From contig CAPI01000123.1 in assembly GCA_000333815.1 (NCBI GenBank), positions 1 through 35,186 of the forward strand: a stretch of DNA of 35,186 nucleotides. Reading direction: 5' to 3'. Source of the stretch: [Collinsella] massiliensis (GTDB lineage Bacteria > Actinomycetota > Coriobacteriia > Coriobacteriales > Coriobacteriaceae). Below are positions 26,170 through 33,214 of the stretch, one piece after another; the stretch's first letter is position 1, and every line of letters starts with the position of its first letter. The notes below the pieces were generated by a model that saw only the letters and a list, made by a program, of their open reading frames with translations, had not been told where the DNA came from and searched no databases. Position numbers and translations under genes: made by a program.

Positions 26170-26200
26170 TGATAAAAAGGTGTCAGACACCTTTTTATCA
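26170..26200. repeat. Palindromic repeat family A, copy 5
   Basis: 31 bp with perfect arms TGATAAAAAGGTG and CACCTTTTTATCA around TCAGA. It begins at the base after the reductase stop and is likely to serve as its terminator. It also faces the tRNA gene transcribed toward it. Confidence 0.88.
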
Positions 26201-26242: not shown

Positions 26243-26317
<75 letters not shown>

Positions 26318-26363: not shown

Positions 26364-26403
26364 GGCGACTCACTGCGGGCGGGTGGGGTGGACGGCGCTG
26401 GCC

Positions 26404-26509
26404 GATGGGTTGGTTGGGGACGTGTTCCTTTCAACCCATTCGCGCGATTGCGGCGTCTCCCGCAGAATCCGAATGGGTTGATAGGAACACGTCCCCAACC
26501 AACCCATCC
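26404..26509. repeat. Inverted pair of family B repeats (REPIN-like)
   Basis: Copy 2 at 26404-26442 (ATGGGTTGGTTGGGGACGTG and onward) and copy 3 at 26470-26509 are reverse complements over about 39 bp with few differences. Each copy has its own ATGGGTTG/CAACCCAT stem. A pair of REP units in inverted orientation is the usual form of a REPIN. No RAYT transposase is in the window. Confidence 0.8.
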
Positions 26510-26528
26510 CACTTCGCCGAAATTCTCG

Positions 26529-26557
26529 CGTATCTTCGCCCGCGATGGGGGTATAGT
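26529..26557 (+). promoter_or_regulatory. Promoter region of candidate RNA copy 1
   Basis: TATAGT at 26552-26557 is a good -10 box. The stretch before it (TTCGCCCGCGATGGGGG) closely matches the one before copy 2 (TTCGCCTGCGGCGGGTG). There is no standard -35 hexamer, so the conserved upstream part may be bound by another factor. Confidence 0.5.
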
Positions 26558-26563
26558 ACGCAT

Positions 26564-26966
26564 ACACTTTTTTCTTCCGTAACCAGCTCCGCTTCGGGCG
26601 GGGCGCCGAGCACATCAGATACGAGTTCTAGCGAGTACGAGGTAACGGCATGCAGTGGAGTAAGGCCATCTAACAACTTAATAGCGCGTGATGTATGTGG
26701 TCCAGCAGTCCCTAGGCGGAGCTGTCTCTATTCGAGGAGCTGCGCCCCGGGTCCCTGCCCCCTGTCCCGTCTCGGCGTGGTCGTTCCTGCGCCGGGCGGA
26801 ACCGACAGGGCTGTCACCTTGATAACCGCATACACGCCAACCTCCCTTCGGCGGGGCGCGCCCGGCGCTGCCCCGTCCCGCGGCGAGCGCACCCCGAGTG
26901 CGCGACGACCTGCGGAAGCGAGCCCGCCGGGGCGATGACCTTGTGGGGAGGGCGGCGCGACCCATT
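26564..26966 (+). ncRNA. Candidate large structured RNA, copy 1
   Basis: A non-coding stretch that matches a second one at 28354-28745. Blocks shared exactly include 26609-26627 (19 nt), 26666-26686 (21 nt, containing CTAACAACTTAATAGCG) and 26708-26728 (21 nt, containing CCTAGGCGGAGCTG). They are followed by GGTCGTTCCTGCG at 26779, a CTTGA-AACCG-ATAC block at 26818 and hairpin loop CCCCGAG at 26892. Distances between blocks differ by only 0-2 nt between copies. A hairpin can be drawn at 26716-26747 (GGCG-AGCT-CTC paired with GAG-AGCT-CGCC). The true 3' end is unknown, and the transcript may run on to 27120. It is not assigned to any known RNA class. A mobile-element RNA of the GOLLD/ROOL kind is only an analogy. 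Confidence 0.65.
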
Positions 26967-27147
26967 CGTCCGGTGGCAGCGGCCACAAGGAACGAGCGCG
27001 GCGGCCGACGGGCCGCGCCGACGCACGAACGTCGGGCACCGGACGGGGAAAGTCGGCTGGGCACCCCCCATCGCGGGCGGTGCCGGCCGGCACACACGGC
27101 ACCAGCCGCACAACGACATCACGCGTTATCAACTAAGGGAGATTCGC

Positions 27148-28296
27148 ATGGACGAAGATGTTCCGACGCTCGAAGATCTGATTGAAGAACTGACGGCAAC
27201 GCCCGTCGAACCGACCGTCGAGCAGCTCGCATGGAAGGCAGAGCAAGAACGCATCGCGCGGGAGCAGAAGGCCCGCGAGGATGAGTTCAACCGGCTCCGC
27301 CGTCCCTACCACGATCGCGTCTTCAGCGCGTTCGCAGCGTTCGCCCGGATTCCGCTCGCGCACCTGGCAGGGGGCTCCGGACGCGTCGCGGAGGCGACCC
27401 GTGCGCGCATCGATGGCTACCTGAAGCGGTTCGGGCCGGGGCTCTGGGATCACTGGGGCAAGACGCTCGGCTCTGCTGCGTGCCTCATCACAGAGGACTA
27501 CTTCGACCTCGAGGAATACCAGCCCAAGCTCATGAAGCAAAAAGACGATGACGAGTTGAACATCGTGCCCTGGGAGCAGCCCTATGAGCCGCCGGCCGAG
27601 GGCTATTACCCTGACGATACCGCCATCGGAGCCGCGCCCGATGCGCCCGAGCGCGACGCCAAGATCAAGGAGGGCCTCGCCCGCATCATGCCCTGCATGA
27701 CCGAGCTCGTCGCCACGGCGATCGACGTGCTCGAGCTGCACGGCGTCGACACGCACCGCGCCGATGCTTACGAGCAGGCGCCGAGCTTCGGCGAGGGGTA
27801 CTACGCAAAGCCTCTCTACGCCGGCATGCTCAAGCTGCCCGCCGCCGCGCGGGAAGACGCCATCGACCGTTTCACGCTCATGGGCATGACGGAGGACGAG
27901 GCGCGCACGACGGTCTCCGTCCTGCTCGAGATCCCGTTCTGCGAGCTCGAGGCCGTCGTCTGGTTCTTCTACGACGACGAGGAACCCTACGGCTTCTCGA
28001 AAACGACCTTCATGCTCGATCTATCCGAGGGCGAGGGTAAGATCATCGACGGGATCGAGTTGTCTCGCCAGGAGCTCATCAACACGATTGACACCGTCGC
28101 CTCCGACACCGTCTGCCACATCAAGACGGCGCACGTGAGCGCAGACGATAGCCAGCCCATCGCTGCTGTCGTGCGCGACCTGGCGGCAGGCGCGCGCACC
28201 GACGATGAGTACGAGGCGCTGCTAGCCATAGGGACGTACAACAAGCTGCTCCACCCGCTCTCCATCATGGCCGACTACCGGATTCCGCGCTGCTGA
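27148..28296 (+). CDS. Unknown protein between the two candidate RNAs
   Basis: 382 residues, acidic, no signal peptide or membrane span. I do not recognise a family. Residues 1-50 are charged and helical (VEQLAWKAEQERIAREQKAR), and 52-100 contain FSAFAAFARIPLAHLAGGSG, which might be a DNA- or RNA-binding helical bundle. A variable acidic loop lies around 125-170. The C-terminal 120 residues are mixed alpha/beta (LDLSEGEGKIIDGIELSRQEL). The ATG at 27148 follows AAGGGAGATTCGC, and frames starting further upstream overlap the candidate RNA. It lies directly after RNA copy 1 and could be read from the same promoter or bind the RNA; both are inference. Confidence 0.75.
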   Translation: MDEDVPTLEDLIEELTATPVEPTVEQLAWKAEQERIAREQKAREDEFNRLRRPYHDRVFSAFAAFARIPLAHLAGGSGRVAEATRARIDGYLKRFGPGLWDHWGKTLGSAACLITEDYFDLEEYQPKLMKQKDDDELNIVPWEQPYEPPAEGYYPDDTAIGAAPDAPERDAKIKEGLARIMPCMTELVATAIDVLELHGVDTHRADAYEQAPSFGEGYYAKPLYAGMLKLPAAAREDAIDRFTLMGMTEDEARTTVSVLLEIPFCELEAVVWFFYDDEEPYGFSKTTFMLDLSEGEGKIIDGIELSRQELINTIDTVASDTVCHIKTAHVSADDSQPIAAVVRDLAAGARTDDEYEALLAIGTYNKLLHPLSIMADYRIPRC

Positions 28297-28318
28297 GCGA
28301 AAAAACTCAAAATTCCTG

Positions 28319-28347
28319 AGCACGTTCGCCTGCGGCGGGTGTATAGT
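28319..28347 (+). promoter_or_regulatory. Promoter region of candidate RNA copy 2
   Basis: TATAGT at 28342-28347, with the upstream block TTCGCCTGCGGCGGGTG shared with copy 1. The distance from the -10 box to the first conserved block is 47 nt here and 53 nt in copy 1. Confidence 0.5.
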
Positions 28348-28353
28348 GAAGCC

Positions 28354-28745
28354 CACCCGTTAAAGAGTTCTGTACCCACAGGCTCGCCGCCAAGCACATC
28401 AGATACGAGTTGTAGCACGTAAGAGGTAATGGCAAGCATGAGCAAGACCATCTAACAACTTAATAGCGTTGGTTGCACGTCGTGGTTCGTCCCTAGGCGG
28501 AGCTGTCTCGATTTGAGGCGTTTGCGCTTGCGGACGTTCCCAGCCCTGCCCCATCGGCGCGGTCGTTCCTGCGTCGTGGGCGCATGGGTCATGGTAGCTT
28601 GACAACCGTATACGCGCTGCTTTCCAGCGGCGTGGTTGCGCCTTGCGCGCAATCGCGCTCCCCGACGAGCGCGCCCCGAGCGCGCGATGACCCGGGGAAG
28701 AGAGCCCGGCATGGCGATGACCTCGCGGGGGAGCAGCGCGATTCC
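28354..28745 (+). ncRNA. Candidate large structured RNA, copy 2
   Basis: Counterpart of 26564-26966. Shared blocks are at 28393-28411, 28448-28468, 28489-28509, 28561-28573, 28598-28617 and around 28669-28733, where GATGACC occurs twice, as in copy 1 (once as GACGACC). The hairpin at 28669-28685 is GCGCG-CCCCGAG-CGCGC, against GCGCA-CCCCGAG-TGCGC in copy 1; this is a compensatory change that keeps the pair. The remaining sequence between blocks differs strongly, as expected for RNA structure rather than coding. The gap to the next gene (28746-28971) shows little similarity to copy 1. Confidence 0.65.
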
Positions 28746-28971
28746 ACATCCTGCACGGCATCTGAAAGGAGCGCGTGGGCAGCAGACGCAACCGCCCCGC
28801 CGCTGAGCACTCGATGTCGCGCAGGGAAACCACACGACGACCGCCAGCTCAAGGCGGTCAAACAAACACGTATCCATAACGCAGTCCTCCGTGCGCCCAC
28901 ACGCGGCGCACGGCCCCACCCTCGAGCACATCACGATGGAAACCACACGTATCAGACGGGAGAGGAACCAC

Positions 28972-29271
28972 ATGGCACACCCTACGGCGCAGCAAACCTT
29001 TTTCGATTCGAACCCTGAATACGCGACGCTCGTCTACGCGGCGCAGGACGCGCGGGCGGCACTCGGTATGGCGCTTTCCGGCGAACTCGACGCGCTGCTC
29101 GCGCATGAGGGAGGCGTCGAGTACGAGCGGTACGGCCGCCCGAGCGATGAGGAGATGCTCGCAACCTATCTTTCCTCCCTGCAGCGCGTCTGGGCGTATG
29201 AGGAGGAGCACCGCGAAGAGGTGCGCCGCTGCCAGGATCTATTCGGTTCCGAGACGTGCGTGGAGGCGTAG
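28972..29271 (+). CDS. Small acidic protein of unknown function
   Basis: 99 residues, acidic, predicted mostly helical, no membrane span. No family recognised. Residues 20-45 (LVYAAQDARAALGMALSGEL) and 60-85 (EEMLATYLSSLQRVWAYEEE) would form amphipathic helices. The ATG at 28972 follows GGGAGAGGAACC. It is the first gene after RNA copy 2 and its stop is one base before the next start, so the two are coupled. Confidence 0.7.
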   Translation: MAHPTAQQTFFDSNPEYATLVYAAQDARAALGMALSGELDALLAHEGGVEYERYGRPSDEEMLATYLSSLQRVWAYEEEHREEVRRCQDLFGSETCVEA

Positions 29272-29272
29272 C

Positions 29273-30196
29273 ATGAACACGCGAACTACCGTACTTGCCG
29301 GCCGCATCGACGCGGCGCTTGACAGCATGGTTCCGCCCGAACTGATCGCTGCCAGCCTCTCCGTCCTTGCGCGTGCCCCCTGGGAGCGCTACTGCGGAGA
29401 CGCGAAGGCGCGCCGCATGTGTCACCGCATCGCTACGTCGGGGATGACCGGGCTGTACCTCGAGAGCTATGGCGCGGAGCTGCCCGAATGGACAGGCGAT
29501 GTCGGCGGCATCGCGCGCCTCGCGATGATCCTCGACGACGCCGTCCGCCGCGCGCAGGATCACAACGCCCTCGTCGCCCTCACCGCGAGTCGGGAGGCGC
29601 TCGTAGACGGCCTGCTCGACCCGATCCGCAAGTACACGATGTGGAACAGCAAAGCCCGTGAGCAGAAAGAGACCGGCCAAGCGTCTGACGATACGGGCAG
29701 GGAGACATCTCGTTCGCAGCGCCGGCGCTCGCCCCGATACGATTTCGCTCACATGGCACGGAAGTACTGTGGCAACGACCTCAATGCTGCCGAAGCGCGT
29801 GCGCTGTTCTATGCCTTCTGCTTTTCCACGGCGGGCGACATCCTCGAAGCCGTCAGGTCGTCGCCTGAACTCTCCAAGGGCCCGGCAGCGCCGGACTTCA
29901 AGCAGTATTCCGCACGGGCGACCGGGGCGCTCGGGGAATCGCGCGACTGCTCTGCCGAGGTCATGTGCGAGCACTTCGCGAAGAAGCGAGCGTGTATCGA
30001 TGAGGCCTGCGAGGACGAGGACTATCCCTGGTGGGATGAGGATCCGGAGAGTCCCGAGGAACGCTTGCAGCGCTTGGCCCTGCCCCTGTTCTTCGAACCC
30101 CTGGCGCTTGCGAGGTGCTATGGAACCGGGGCAGCGTGTGCTCGCACACAGGCACGCCGCAATCCCACGCTCTCTGCCCGCCTCGCTGCCGCCTGA
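29273..30196 (+). CDS. Unknown protein, coupled to the small acidic gene
   Basis: 307 residues with no family I recognise. The N-terminal 125 residues look helical (VLAGRIDAALDSMVPPELI, GGIARLAMILDDAVRRAQD). Residues 126-152 are a hydrophilic Ser/Arg/Gln linker. The C-terminal half contains MARKYCGNDLNAAEARALFYAF and a Cys- and Asp/Glu-rich stretch (CEHFAKKRACIDEACEDEDY) that might bind a metal, followed by a basic Arg-rich end. It starts two bases after the upstream stop and precedes the ATPase gene by 51 bp. A partner role for the ATPase is possible from position only. Confidence 0.7.
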   Translation: MNTRTTVLAGRIDAALDSMVPPELIAASLSVLARAPWERYCGDAKARRMCHRIATSGMTGLYLESYGAELPEWTGDVGGIARLAMILDDAVRRAQDHNALVALTASREALVDGLLDPIRKYTMWNSKAREQKETGQASDDTGRETSRSQRRRSPRYDFAHMARKYCGNDLNAAEARALFYAFCFSTAGDILEAVRSSPELSKGPAAPDFKQYSARATGALGESRDCSAEVMCEHFAKKRACIDEACEDEDYPWWDEDPESPEERLQRLALPLFFEPLALARCYGTGAACARTQARRNPTLSARLAAA

Positions 30197-30247
30197 TGCA
30201 AGGGCGCGCCAGACCAAAACCAATACGTTTCAGAAGGGATGCTGCTC

Positions 30248-31654
30248 ATGTCCACGGACTTGCCGAACGTCATCGACCGCACCGCTTACCAGAGCCAGAC
30301 CATCGTCGGCCGCAACCGCACCATCGAGACCGACTCCTTCCAGACGGGCATCAACAACAACATGCTCGTCATCGGCCCATCAGGCGCGGGCAAGACGCGC
30401 CACGTGCTCAAGCCCAACCTGCTTCAGATGGGCTCGAGCTTCATCGTGCTCGACACCAAGGGCACGCTCTGCCGCGAGATGGGCACGATGCTCGCTGGTG
30501 CAGGCTATACGGTCGAGTGCCTCGACTTCGCGAACATCTGCGAAGAGCCGCGACCGCTTCCCGCCGGAGCCGCGCACGTGGGCTACAACCCGCTCTCGTT
30601 CATCCGTCGAGACTCCCACGGCCGCCCCAACCAGCAGGACATCCTCTCCATCGCTGTCGCACTCTGCCCTGTCGAGAACGGGAAGGAGCCGTTCTGGGAC
30701 CGCGCCGCGGCAAACCTCCTTGCCGCGCTCATCGCATACGTGATGGAAGAGCTGCCACGCGAGGAGCAGACGTTCGCTGCGCTGGTCGAGCTTGCCGAGC
30801 ACCTGAATGACGGTGCGACATTCCGCTTGCTCGATGACCTCGAGGTGAGCGACCCCGATAGCCTCGCATCCTCGCTGTACCTGCGCTACGCCTCCACGCG
30901 CGATGCCGAGAAGATGAACGCGAGCATCATCGGCATCATTGCCGAGAAGCTCATGTGCCTGGGGTTCGACGGGGCGCTCAGACTCTACACCGCCTCCCGC
31001 CAGGTCGATTTCGCCCGCTTCGGCCACGAGCGCCGCGCGCTCTTCGTGACCATGAGCGACATCGACCGCGCGCTCGATCCACTCACGAGCCTCTTCGTCG
31101 ACCAGGCCTTCAAGGCGCTCCTGCGCGAAGCGGACCGTTGCCCGGGCGGCCGCATGCCCGTTCCCGTACGGCTCTTCCTCGACGACTTCGCGAACCTCTA
31201 CATCAACAACATCGACGACCTGCTCGCCGTCGCACGCAGTCGAGAGATCTGGGTCACGCTGCTGCTGCAGTCTGTGAATCAGCTCGAGGCACGCTACGGC
31301 CGGTCGCGCGCCATGTCCATCATGGGCAACTGCGACGTGCAGCTCGCGTTGGGCTTCCAGGACCTCGACACGGCGCGTTGCTTCTCCGAGCGTGCGGATC
31401 GGATGCCGAAGACCCTGCTCGAGCTGCCCTCCGGTCGCGCCTGGCTCTTCGTACGCGGTCGGCGTGCCGAGGAAGTTGAGAGCTACCGCCTAGAGGAACA
31501 CCCGCGCTACGCAGAGCTCGTCACTGCGGCTGCCGCTCCGTTCGAGACGTCGGGGCAGAGGGCTCCGGAAGCAGCGCCCGCGCGTGAACCCGTCGATCCC
31601 GTTTCCATGGGGGAGGCGTGTTCGTTCACGCTCGACGAGGAAATTCCGTTCTAG
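30248..31654 (+). CDS. VirD4/TraG-like coupling ATPase without membrane domain
   Basis: 468 residues. Walker A GPSGAGKT at 43-50 is followed by KPNLLQMGSSFIVLDTKG, typical of conjugative coupling proteins. Walker B RLFLDDFAN is at 308-316 and the LLQSVNQLEARYG motif at 339-351. Normal VirD4/TraG proteins have one or two N-terminal membrane spans and are about 600 residues; this one starts only 42 residues before Walker A, so the membrane part is absent. I chose the ATG at 30248 over 30239 because AGAAGGG sits 9 bp upstream. It may be a soluble DNA pump or belong to a mobilisable element. No relaxase or T4SS channel gene is visible. Confidence 0.88.
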   Translation: MSTDLPNVIDRTAYQSQTIVGRNRTIETDSFQTGINNNMLVIGPSGAGKTRHVLKPNLLQMGSSFIVLDTKGTLCREMGTMLAGAGYTVECLDFANICEEPRPLPAGAAHVGYNPLSFIRRDSHGRPNQQDILSIAVALCPVENGKEPFWDRAAANLLAALIAYVMEELPREEQTFAALVELAEHLNDGATFRLLDDLEVSDPDSLASSLYLRYASTRDAEKMNASIIGIIAEKLMCLGFDGALRLYTASRQVDFARFGHERRALFVTMSDIDRALDPLTSLFVDQAFKALLREADRCPGGRMPVPVRLFLDDFANLYINNIDDLLAVARSREIWVTLLLQSVNQLEARYGRSRAMSIMGNCDVQLALGFQDLDTARCFSERADRMPKTLLELPSGRAWLFVRGRRAEEVESYRLEEHPRYAELVTAAAAPFETSGQRAPEAAPAREPVDPVSMGEACSFTLDEEIPF

Positions 31655-31714
31655 CCCCGCCCCAGCACCTGTCTAGTCTGTTCAAACCGTGTAGCCCAAG
31701 AGAGAGGAATCTTC

Positions 31715-32311
31715 ATGGAACAACGCATCATCAGTCCCCGCACCATGCGCGAGACGGCGCGCGGCATCGCGCTCACGAGTATCTACGACGAGATGCTCTC
31801 CCGCCGCGAGCTCTCCGTGACCGGAGCGATCGATGCCGCCATGGCGTTCGACATCTGCCAGCAGCTGCTCCAACTCGAGCACGATGACACCTCCGCCGAG
31901 GTCACGCTCTATGTGGCGAGTCCGGGCGGCAGCGTCTCCGCCGGCCTCGCCATCGTGGACACCATGCGCACCATCGCATGCCCCGTGCGCACCGTGTGCC
32001 TCGATACCGCCGCGTCCATGGGCGCGATTATCTTCGTTTCCGGTGACCGCCGCGAGATGTTCCCGCACGCCGAGCTCATGATCCACGACCCGCTCATCCA
32101 GAACGCCGGCGGCTCGGCGCTCTCCGTGCAGGAGACGAGCCGTCGCCTCATGGGGCTTCGCCGCACCCTCAGCCAGATTCTGGCTGACCGCAGCGGCCTT
32201 ACCGTCAAGCGCGTGCAGGCGCTCACTGCCAAGGACACCTTCCTCACTGCCGAGCGCGCCGTGGAGCTCGGCTTCGCCGACGCGATCGTCGAGCCGCGCA
32301 AGGCGGCATAG
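31715..32311 (+). CDS. ClpP-type serine protease
   Basis: 198 residues of ClpP fold. The oxyanion loop SPGGSVSAG is at 69-77. The nucleophile Ser101 is in AASMGA, His124 in LMIHDPL (usually MIHQP), and Asp174 in TAKDTF matches the last Asp of the ERDTERD stretch of E. coli ClpP, so the triad is complete. Such isolated ClpP paralogues occur in phages and other mobile elements, where they process capsid or partner proteins. Here it follows the ATPase gene by 60 bp. No ClpX or ClpA partner is present, and no capsid genes are visible. The ATG at 31715 follows AGAGAGGAATC. Confidence 0.9.
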   Translation: MEQRIISPRTMRETARGIALTSIYDEMLSRRELSVTGAIDAAMAFDICQQLLQLEHDDTSAEVTLYVASPGGSVSAGLAIVDTMRTIACPVRTVCLDTAASMGAIIFVSGDRREMFPHAELMIHDPLIQNAGGSALSVQETSRRLMGLRRTLSQILADRSGLTVKRVQALTAKDTFLTAERAVELGFADAIVEPRKAA

Positions 32312-32407
32312 AGGAGGGCGTGCCGGGTCGCGCCCGAGCAGCGTGCTTGCGCGCGTCCCGGCTTGTTTCGCCATTGCAGGTCGACGTCGAGAGGGAAGGA
32401 GACGCGC

Positions 32408-33214
32408 ATGTTTCGCATCCTGTTCAAGTTCATCATCCGAATGCTCCTGGTTTGCTTCATATTGCTCTGTCTGATGGCCTACTGCACCGCTCACGTTCCC
32501 GACCCAAACACCGGTTTCAACCCTATGGGCGAGCAGGTGTTCGTCCCCGAGGGCAAGGCCTATATGGGCGAGGTGGTCGAAATCAACGAGGGATCTCAGC
32601 TTGAGGAATGGGCACACTCGTTCGACCCGGGGCAGTATCCGGATTACGTCCGCGTCGTCAGCGCGTATCCGGACGAACTGCGCACCGAGCTCGATAACGG
32701 CATCTTGTACGGAGAGGTCGATGACCTCGGACGCCTGCCGGGTGCTGCCGGTTGGATCACGAACGACATGCGCTCCGATGCACCGGATGCAGAGGCGGAC
32801 ATCATGGATATGAAGGGTAACGTCTGGGCGAAGGTGCCCGGCACGCCGGGGCGCTACGGCTTCGAGGGCAACTTGTTCAAGCCCGTGAATCTCATTCCTC
32901 CGTCGCTCGGTGGCGACAACGCGAGCCACAACATCGTGCGCGGCACTGTGATGCTCGATGAGGGCGACGGTCACACCCCGGGTGGCCTCTCCTATACCGA
33001 GAGCCTTGTCAACGACTACCTCGATACGCATCCGGACGGGCGCGTATGGTACAACGTCGTGCCGGTCTACGGCGCGGGCGAGGTCATCCCGCGCGCCATC
33101 GTGGTCGGCATCGCTACCGAGGACGGTGAGTTGAGCGTGCGTGCGGTCGTGTTCAACGCCGCGAACGGCCTCGACATCGACTACAAGACCGGTGAGGTGA
33201 GCATGGTGAGGTAA
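32408..33214 (+). CDS. EndA-like nuclease-fold protein lacking the DRGH motif
   Basis: 268 residues. The N-terminus (about 8-26) is a hydrophobic segment, either a signal peptide or a membrane anchor. The C-terminal half resembles the DNA/RNA non-specific endonuclease family: NLIPPSLGGDNASHNIVRGT (161-180), then YTESLVNDYLDTHPDGRVWY, VVPVYGAGEVIPRAIVVGI and VVFNAANGLDIDYKTGEV. In active EndA/NucA members the stretch before this reads DRGHL; here residues 157-162 are FKPVNL, so the catalytic His is absent. The Asn that helps bind the metal (Asn175) is kept. It is probably inactive as a nuclease, or uses another mechanism. The ATG at 32408 follows GGGAAGGAGACG. Confidence 0.7.
   Translation: MFRILFKFIIRMLLVCFILLCLMAYCTAHVPDPNTGFNPMGEQVFVPEGKAYMGEVVEINEGSQLEEWAHSFDPGQYPDYVRVVSAYPDELRTELDNGILYGEVDDLGRLPGAAGWITNDMRSDAPDAEADIMDMKGNVWAKVPGTPGRYGFEGNLFKPVNLIPPSLGGDNASHNIVRGTVMLDEGDGHTPGGLSYTESLVNDYLDTHPDGRVWYNVVPVYGAGEVIPRAIVVGIATEDGELSVRAVVFNAANGLDIDYKTGEVSMVR

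What the first reader, a model, noticed from the sequence alone, without database searches (positions are those of the whole stretch)
26564..28745. Two copies of an undescribed large structured RNA candidate
Intergenic stretches at 26564-26966 and 28354-28745 share six or more conserved blocks, three of them identical over 19-21 nt. Block distances differ by 0-2 nt over more than 280 nt (for example 57/55, 42/41, 184/185), while the sequence between blocks differs strongly. That is the pattern of a folded RNA, not of coding or recent duplication. Each has its own TATAGT box and each precedes an unknown gene. I cannot match it to a known class; large phage or mobile-element RNAs such as GOLLD and ROOL are the closest idea.
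Basis: partly seen in the sequence, partly recalled or inferred. Interest (0 to 1): 0.9.

Follow-up and report, generated by a model that had tools for sequence, protein, structure and literature searches.

The report
Duplicated leader RNA with tiny ORF
Two related stretches of folded RNA sit in front of unknown genes on what looks like a mobile DNA island; they appear to be long control leaders containing a tiny protein-coding start, found so far in only three genomes and absent from the RNA family catalogue.

Summary
The two intergenic stretches are 73% identical over about 355 nt, each has a matching promoter, and neither matches Rfam. A third copy lies in another genome of the genus. Two more lie in a genome of another family of the order; one of these was found by a model not trained on it (E about 1e-11). 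All five point towards a gene with no terminator between. In the genus copies the fold is supported on the plus strand only (13 pairs with two-sided change against 4.8 in shuffles).

The GOLLD/ROOL idea is not supported. The part conserved between families is the first ~100 nt: promoter, 5' hairpin, GCCRAGCACAUCA block, purine-rich GUAAGAGGUAANGGCA, then a tiny ORF always ending in UAA (MQWSKAI, MSKTI, MRNTV, MITKESIF, MITNTTTI). I read it as a duplicated promoter-leader cassette with a regulatory uORF, serving several transcription units of an island that carries a conjugation-type coupling protein and a ClpP-like protease. Translation-sensing attenuation is the likeliest mechanism; RNA-only antitermination (like canT of Tn916) is the main rival. 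Neither is shown. It is a new leader class of a known kind, rare in the genomes searched, and of moderate interest.

The parts
26522..26557 (+). promoter of copy 1: ATTCTCG-N5-CTTCGCCCGCGATGGGGG-TATAGT
   Evidence: same motif before copy 2 and in G004, related one before both G172 copies; transcription start ~26563 inferred
26585..26604 (+). 5' hairpin of copy 1 (GCUCCGCUUCGGGCGGGGC)
   Evidence: a hairpin at this position can form in all five copies with different sequence, but only the G004 one clearly beats shuffles
26605..26617 (+). block A GCCGAGCACATCA
   Evidence: conserved in all five copies
26635..26650 (+). purine-rich SD-like block GTACGAGGTAACGGCA
   Evidence: conserved in all five copies
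26650..26673 (+). uORF of copy 1, MQWSKAI*, stop TAA
26604..26960 (+). leader RNA copy 1, conserved structured region (P1, central hairpins, 3' domain)
27148..28296 (+). 382-aa protein behind leader 1; no known family; 72% and 53-54% relatives in G004 only
28312..28347 (+). promoter of copy 2: ATTCCTG-N5-GTTCGCCTGCGGCGGGTG-TATAGT
28365..28385 (+). 5' hairpin of copy 2 (GAGUUCUGUACCCACAGGCUC)
   Evidence: not better than shuffles on its own
28389..28401 (+). block A of copy 2 GCCAAGCACATCA
28419..28434 (+). SD-like block of copy 2 GTAAGAGGTAATGGCA
28438..28455 (+). uORF of copy 2, MSKTI* (or MASMSKTI* from the in-frame ATG at 28429), stop TAA
28388..28741 (+). leader RNA copy 2, conserved structured region; absent in G004 (28297-28912 replaced by ~46 nt)
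28972..29271 (+). 99-aa protein, first gene behind leader 2; 58% relative in G172
29273..30196 (+). 307-aa protein; 98% in G004, 29% in G172
30239..31654 (+). VirD4-like coupling protein, CD1115 family
   Evidence: NCBIfam NF045973 above cut-off; Pfam T4SS-DNA_transf
31715..32311 (+). ClpP-like serine protease; 87% identical in G172

Best explanation
A promoter plus long 5' leader cassette, duplicated within a mobile-type island, that controls the genes downstream in cis. Transcription starts just after TATAGT. The nascent RNA forms a hairpin, exposes the GCCRAGCACAUCA block and a purine-rich ribosome-binding-like block, and a ribosome reads a tiny uORF ending in UAA. Whether ribosomes start, stall or finish on this uORF decides how the rest of the leader folds, and so whether polymerase or ribosomes go on to the island genes (382-aa protein; 99-aa, 307-aa, VirD4-like, ClpP-like). 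Shown computationally: homology of five copies, shared promoter, orientation, uORF in all five, plus-strand fold support in the genus copies. Inferred: transcription start, translation of the uORF, the sensing step and the output.
For: Five copies in three genomes of two families, all in the sense direction directly before a gene. Copy a of G172 was found by model R2 without being in its training set (61 bits, E 3e-12 to 1e-10). Copies a and b of G172 are 87% identical over 214 nt covering promoter, hairpin, block A and SD-like block, and the match ends at the uORF, so the duplicated unit is promoter plus leader. All five have ATG shortly after the SD-like block and UAA after 5-8 codons, ATG included; the chance per sequence is 5-7% for any stop and 2-3% for TAA. 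The uORF differences among the three genus copies fall on codon positions 1 and 3, none on 2. Alifold z -2.85 on the + strand against -0.87 on the - strand; 13 pairs with two-sided change against 4.8, 0 of 500 shuffles. No terminator-like site between RNA and gene. Precedents: uORF toiL sensing translation stress (PMC12121999); tet(M) and tetQ leader attenuators of mobile elements (PMC5418344).
Against: The uORF peptides differ, so no stalling peptide is conserved. SD-like block to ATG is 7, 11, 11, 14 and 14 nt, long in G172. A duplex between the region after the uORF and the downstream ribosome-binding site is better than shuffles only in copy 1 (-29.2 kcal/mol, 3/300), not in the other four. 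No terminator/antiterminator pair is visible. Only three sequences support the long fold, and the structure was derived from them. No expression data.
Confidence: 0.45

Rival explanations
1. RNA-only processive antiterminator: the nascent leader binds RNA polymerase and makes it resistant to termination along the island operon, like canT of Tn916 or put/EAR; the uORF is incidental.
For: Similar length (canT active fragments 341-452 nt), position at the head of transfer-type genes, cis orientation (PMC11658703); conserved block near the 5' end.
Against: No sequence match of model R2 to pCF10, whose Tn916-like element should hold canT (best E 1.2, inside mobT). Terminator-like sites in the window's island are no more frequent than in shuffles (5 against 6.8). 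The uORF is kept in all five copies.
Confidence: 0.2
2. Free-standing structured non-coding RNA (GOLLD/ROOL-like) that happens to be encoded before genes.
For: Strong conservation of blocks and spacing; compensatory changes; association with a mobile-type island.
Against: No Rfam match; no terminator at the end of the blocks; always directly before a gene in the same direction; 3' domain not recognisably kept in G172 (best match at the expected place E 1.1); copy a leaves only about 270 nt between block A and the gene.
Confidence: 0.13
3. Cis leader controlled by a protein or small molecule binding block A and the SD-like block (riboswitch or protein-binding leader), with the uORF incidental.
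For: The 13-nt block A and the GUAAGAGGUAANGGCA block are the most conserved parts across families.
Against: uORF present in all five with UAA stop; no conserved junction is evident between families.
Confidence: 0.12
4. DNA feature: duplicated promoter/operator or transfer origin with no RNA function.
For: The promoter itself is part of the duplicated unit; coupling-protein gene nearby.
Against: Conservation extends 350 nt downstream of the promoter with pairing support on the + strand only; no relaxase found beside it.
Confidence: 0.1

Closest known systems
Leader-peptide (uORF) attenuators of mobile elements and stress genes: tet(M) leader, tetQ/CTnDOT, toiL-topAI
   Same: short ORF in a structured 5' leader upstream of the controlled genes; mobile-element context for tet(M) and tetQ
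   Different: no conserved peptide, no identified terminator or RBS-sequestering hairpin common to the copies; long leader (300-620 nt); no sequence relation tested
canT antiterminator RNA of Tn916
   Same: ~350-450-nt RNA at the head of transfer-type genes, acting in cis (by hypothesis here)
   Different: no sequence match; uORF present; no excess of terminators in the window's operon; GC-rich host
conAn (ConAn1 protein + conAn2 RNA) of pLS20
   Same: RNA near the start of conjugation genes (PMC8955417)
   Different: the island shows only one conjugation gene, not a >30 kb operon with many terminators; ConAn1 homologues and conAn2 not specifically searched
GOLLD / ROOL / OLE ornate RNAs
   Same: large, structured, mobile-element association
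   Different: no Rfam match; leader position; core conserved across families is only ~100 nt

Membership tests
Rfam RNA family of any kind | covariance-model match at gathering score | tested here: not met
   no match; best sub-threshold 13.6 and 21.3 bits against cut-offs 42.5 and 36
Leader-peptide attenuator | short ORF with ribosome-binding site in the leader | tested here: met
   5 of 5 copies, 5-8 codons including ATG, UAA stop; translation itself not shown, SD spacing 7-14 nt
Leader-peptide attenuator | alternative structures linking uORF position to a terminator or to the downstream RBS | tested here: inconclusive
   no terminator; long-range pairing to RBS significant only in copy 1
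Leader-peptide attenuator | response to translation inhibitors or charged tRNA | not testable with these tools
   needs reporter assay
canT / conAn processive antiterminators | sequence homology to a known member | tested here: not met
   R2 gives no match near the excisionase end of the Tn916-like element in pCF10 (L134); conAn2 not tested
canT / conAn processive antiterminators | intrinsic terminators inside the downstream operon | tested here: inconclusive
   5 sites against 6.8 +/- 2.8 expected in the window; 8 against 3.7 +/- 1.9 in the G172 locus
canT / conAn processive antiterminators | terminator read-through in cis | not testable with these tools
   needs reporter assay
GOLLD / ROOL | match to the family model | tested here: not met
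   (that both families are in Rfam is from memory)
GOLLD / ROOL | independent large transcript | not testable with these tools
   no transcript data; genomic position argues against it

The most novel reading that the evidence does not exclude
The 350-400-nt fold is a new class of RNA machine carried by mobile islands of one bacterial order: an RNA antiterminator or ribosome-interacting leader whose uORF loads a ribosome to license transcription of the whole island.
Probability: 0.15. Interest if true: 0.7.

Novelty: new variant of a known kind. Interest (0 to 1): 0.42.

Why it matters
If confirmed, this is a leader class not in Rfam that controls a little-known module (VirD4-like coupling protein, ClpP-like protease, two unknown proteins) shared between families of one bacterial order. 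A uORF in front of such genes would tie activity of a mobile island to the translation state of the host, as tetracycline-induced transfer does in other elements. The duplication of the same promoter-leader in front of different genes in both islands gives a natural experiment for what the leader does.

Tried and rejected
Coding explanation of the blocks: rejected, because frames differ between copies, indels are not multiples of three, and substitutions in the 3' blocks show no codon-position bias (inspection). tRNA/tmRNA: none but a tRNA-Thr outside. Guanidine-III (21.3 bits) and COG3860 (13.6 bits) hits: far below threshold, and in one copy each. Viral scans with block patterns: no hit, a chance hit in coding sequence, or phages with no model match. 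Genome-contig scan with a 19-mer: four hits in unrelated phyla, judged chance. blastn of copies 1 and b against phages and plasmids: nothing. blastn and model R1 over the order found only the genus copies; G172 was missed by both and found through its neighbour gene. Profile of the 99-aa protein over 232 genomes gave no new island. Long-range pairing to the RBS as the general switch: not conserved. Fold prediction of the 382-aa protein from a single sequence: useless (pLDDT 41).

Full report
What was checked. The two stretches share a 357-nt region (26604-26960 with 28388-28741, 73% identity, E about 2e-48). The core 20-mer occurs only twice in the 2.33-Mb genome. Rfam has nothing.

More copies. 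Among five genomes of the genus one other, G004, carries a copy (86% to copy 1), again before a relative (72%) of the 382-aa protein. blastn and a model of the 5' half (R1) found no more in 395 genomes of the order. The neighbour gene p307 led to G172, in another family, with the set p307, VirD4-like, ClpP-like (87% identical), p99. The 700-nt gap before p307 there holds a divergent copy b (L122:8319 onwards), recognised by reading the sequence. A model R2 including it then found a fifth copy, a (L122:4877-5017, 61 bits, E 3e-12 to 1e-10). R2 was not trained on copy a, but it was trained on b, which resembles a. The RNA is therefore rare: three genomes found of about 395, with R2 run on only 40 of them plus the loci in hand. 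The tools give no organism names.

Anatomy. All five copies share a promoter region, a hairpin of variable sequence just upstream of GCCRAGCACAUCA, then GUAMGAGGUAANGGCA, then ATG and a short ORF: MQWSKAI (26650-26673), MSKTI (28438-28455), MRNTV, MITKESIF, MITNTTTI, all ending UAA. The chance of such an ORF is 5-7% per shuffled sequence and 2-3% with UAA; the copies are related, so these do not simply multiply. The hairpin is weak evidence: only in G004 does it clearly beat shuffles. Copies a and b are 87% identical over 214 nt, and this identity stops at the uORF. What has been copied is thus promoter plus 5' leader.

Structure. For the three genus copies RNAalifold gives -116.6 kcal/mol, z -2.85 against column shuffles on the + strand and -0.87 on the - strand. 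Of 118 pairs 13 show change on both sides (shuffles 4.8, none of 500 as high; slid controls 0-5), four of them in one helix, columns 213-219 with 257-263. Caution: three sequences, structure derived from them, two of them close. Single-sequence folding is only mildly unusual (z -1.5, -3.0, -0.6). With G172 added the signal falls (z -1.56), and the 3' domain is not recognisable there with confidence (nhmmer E 1.1 at the expected place). The long fold is therefore a property shown for one genus; the 5' ~100 nt is the family.

Surroundings. In the window, copy 1 precedes a 382-aa protein without known relatives outside the genus. Copy 2 precedes p99, p307, a VirD4-like protein of the CD1115 family above NCBI's cut-off, and a ClpP-like protein. 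G004 has a single copy: copy 2 with its flanks (28297-28912) is replaced by about 46 nt. The region from 28913 on is 96% identical between the genomes, whereas leader 1 plus p382 is only 81%, so the two parts have different histories. In G000 the island abuts tRNA-Thr(tgt), and in G004 its other end abuts tRNA-Tyr. In G001 and G002 these two tRNA genes lie some 360-600 nt apart with no island, which suggests a shared insertion region. In G172 copy a precedes a 553-aa protein homologous (37%, E 5e-54) to a 345-aa protein of the G004 island. I found no relaxase or integrase in the stretches examined, so 'mobile' rests on the coupling protein, patchy distribution and mosaicism.

How it probably works. 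A cis-acting leader fits best: sense orientation before a gene in five of five, no terminator-like site between RNA and gene in the window, leader lengths of about 300-620 nt. The uORF makes translation-sensing the likeliest trigger, as in toiL (PMC12121999) and in the tet(M) and tetQ leaders (PMC5418344). But the output step is not identified: pairing between the region behind the uORF and the gene's ribosome-binding site is strong in copy 1 (-29.2 kcal/mol, 3 of 300 shuffles) and not in the other four. The main rival is an RNA antiterminator like canT of Tn916 (PMC11658703). It has similar size and place, but there is no sequence match to the Tn916-like element of pCF10 and no excess of terminators in the window; the G172 locus has a mild excess.

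Verdict. Observation confirmed. The interpretation as an RNA not in Rfam is supported; the GOLLD/ROOL comparison is not. This is a duplicated promoter-leader cassette with a conserved tiny uORF, a new leader class of a known kind, with mechanism inferred.

Noticed in passing
window 26393-26519: Long palindrome (50-nt arms, 88%) upstream of copy 1 is a genome-wide intergenic repeat: GTTGGGGACGTGTTCCTTT matches 84 times in G000 within 2 mismatches.
   Followed up: partly
window 26170-26200: Short palindrome (AAAAAGGTGTCAGACACCTTTTT type) repeated dozens of times in this genome.
   Followed up: no
window 26243-26317; L021:519-746; L049; L050: The island lies between tRNA-Thr(tgt) and the tRNA-Tyr/Thr/Met-tuf cluster region; relatives G001 and G002 have only 360-600 nt there, and G000 has the tRNA-Thr in the opposite orientation relative to its neighbours.
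   Followed up: partly
window 28913-32461 and L021:7961-11507: Module p99-p307-VirD4-ClpP is 96% identical to G004 while the adjoining leader 1 plus p382 is 81%: mosaic island.
   Followed up: partly
window 26537-26551 and 27065-27079: Perfect 15-nt inverted repeat between the promoter spacer of copy 1 and its own leader; by inspection not kept in G004.
   Followed up: no
window 26678-26694 and 27116-27132: 17-nt, 88% complementary arms linking the region just behind the uORF stop with the stretch just upstream of the p382 ribosome-binding site; strong only in copy 1.
   Followed up: yes
L021:4960-5814: DarT-like ADP-ribosyltransferase gene (Pfam 8e-10) in the G004 island, suggesting defence or toxin-antitoxin cargo.
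   Followed up: no
window 66-8126: Very long ORF (2686 aa) with a 2246-aa ORF on the opposite strand; not examined.
   Followed up: no
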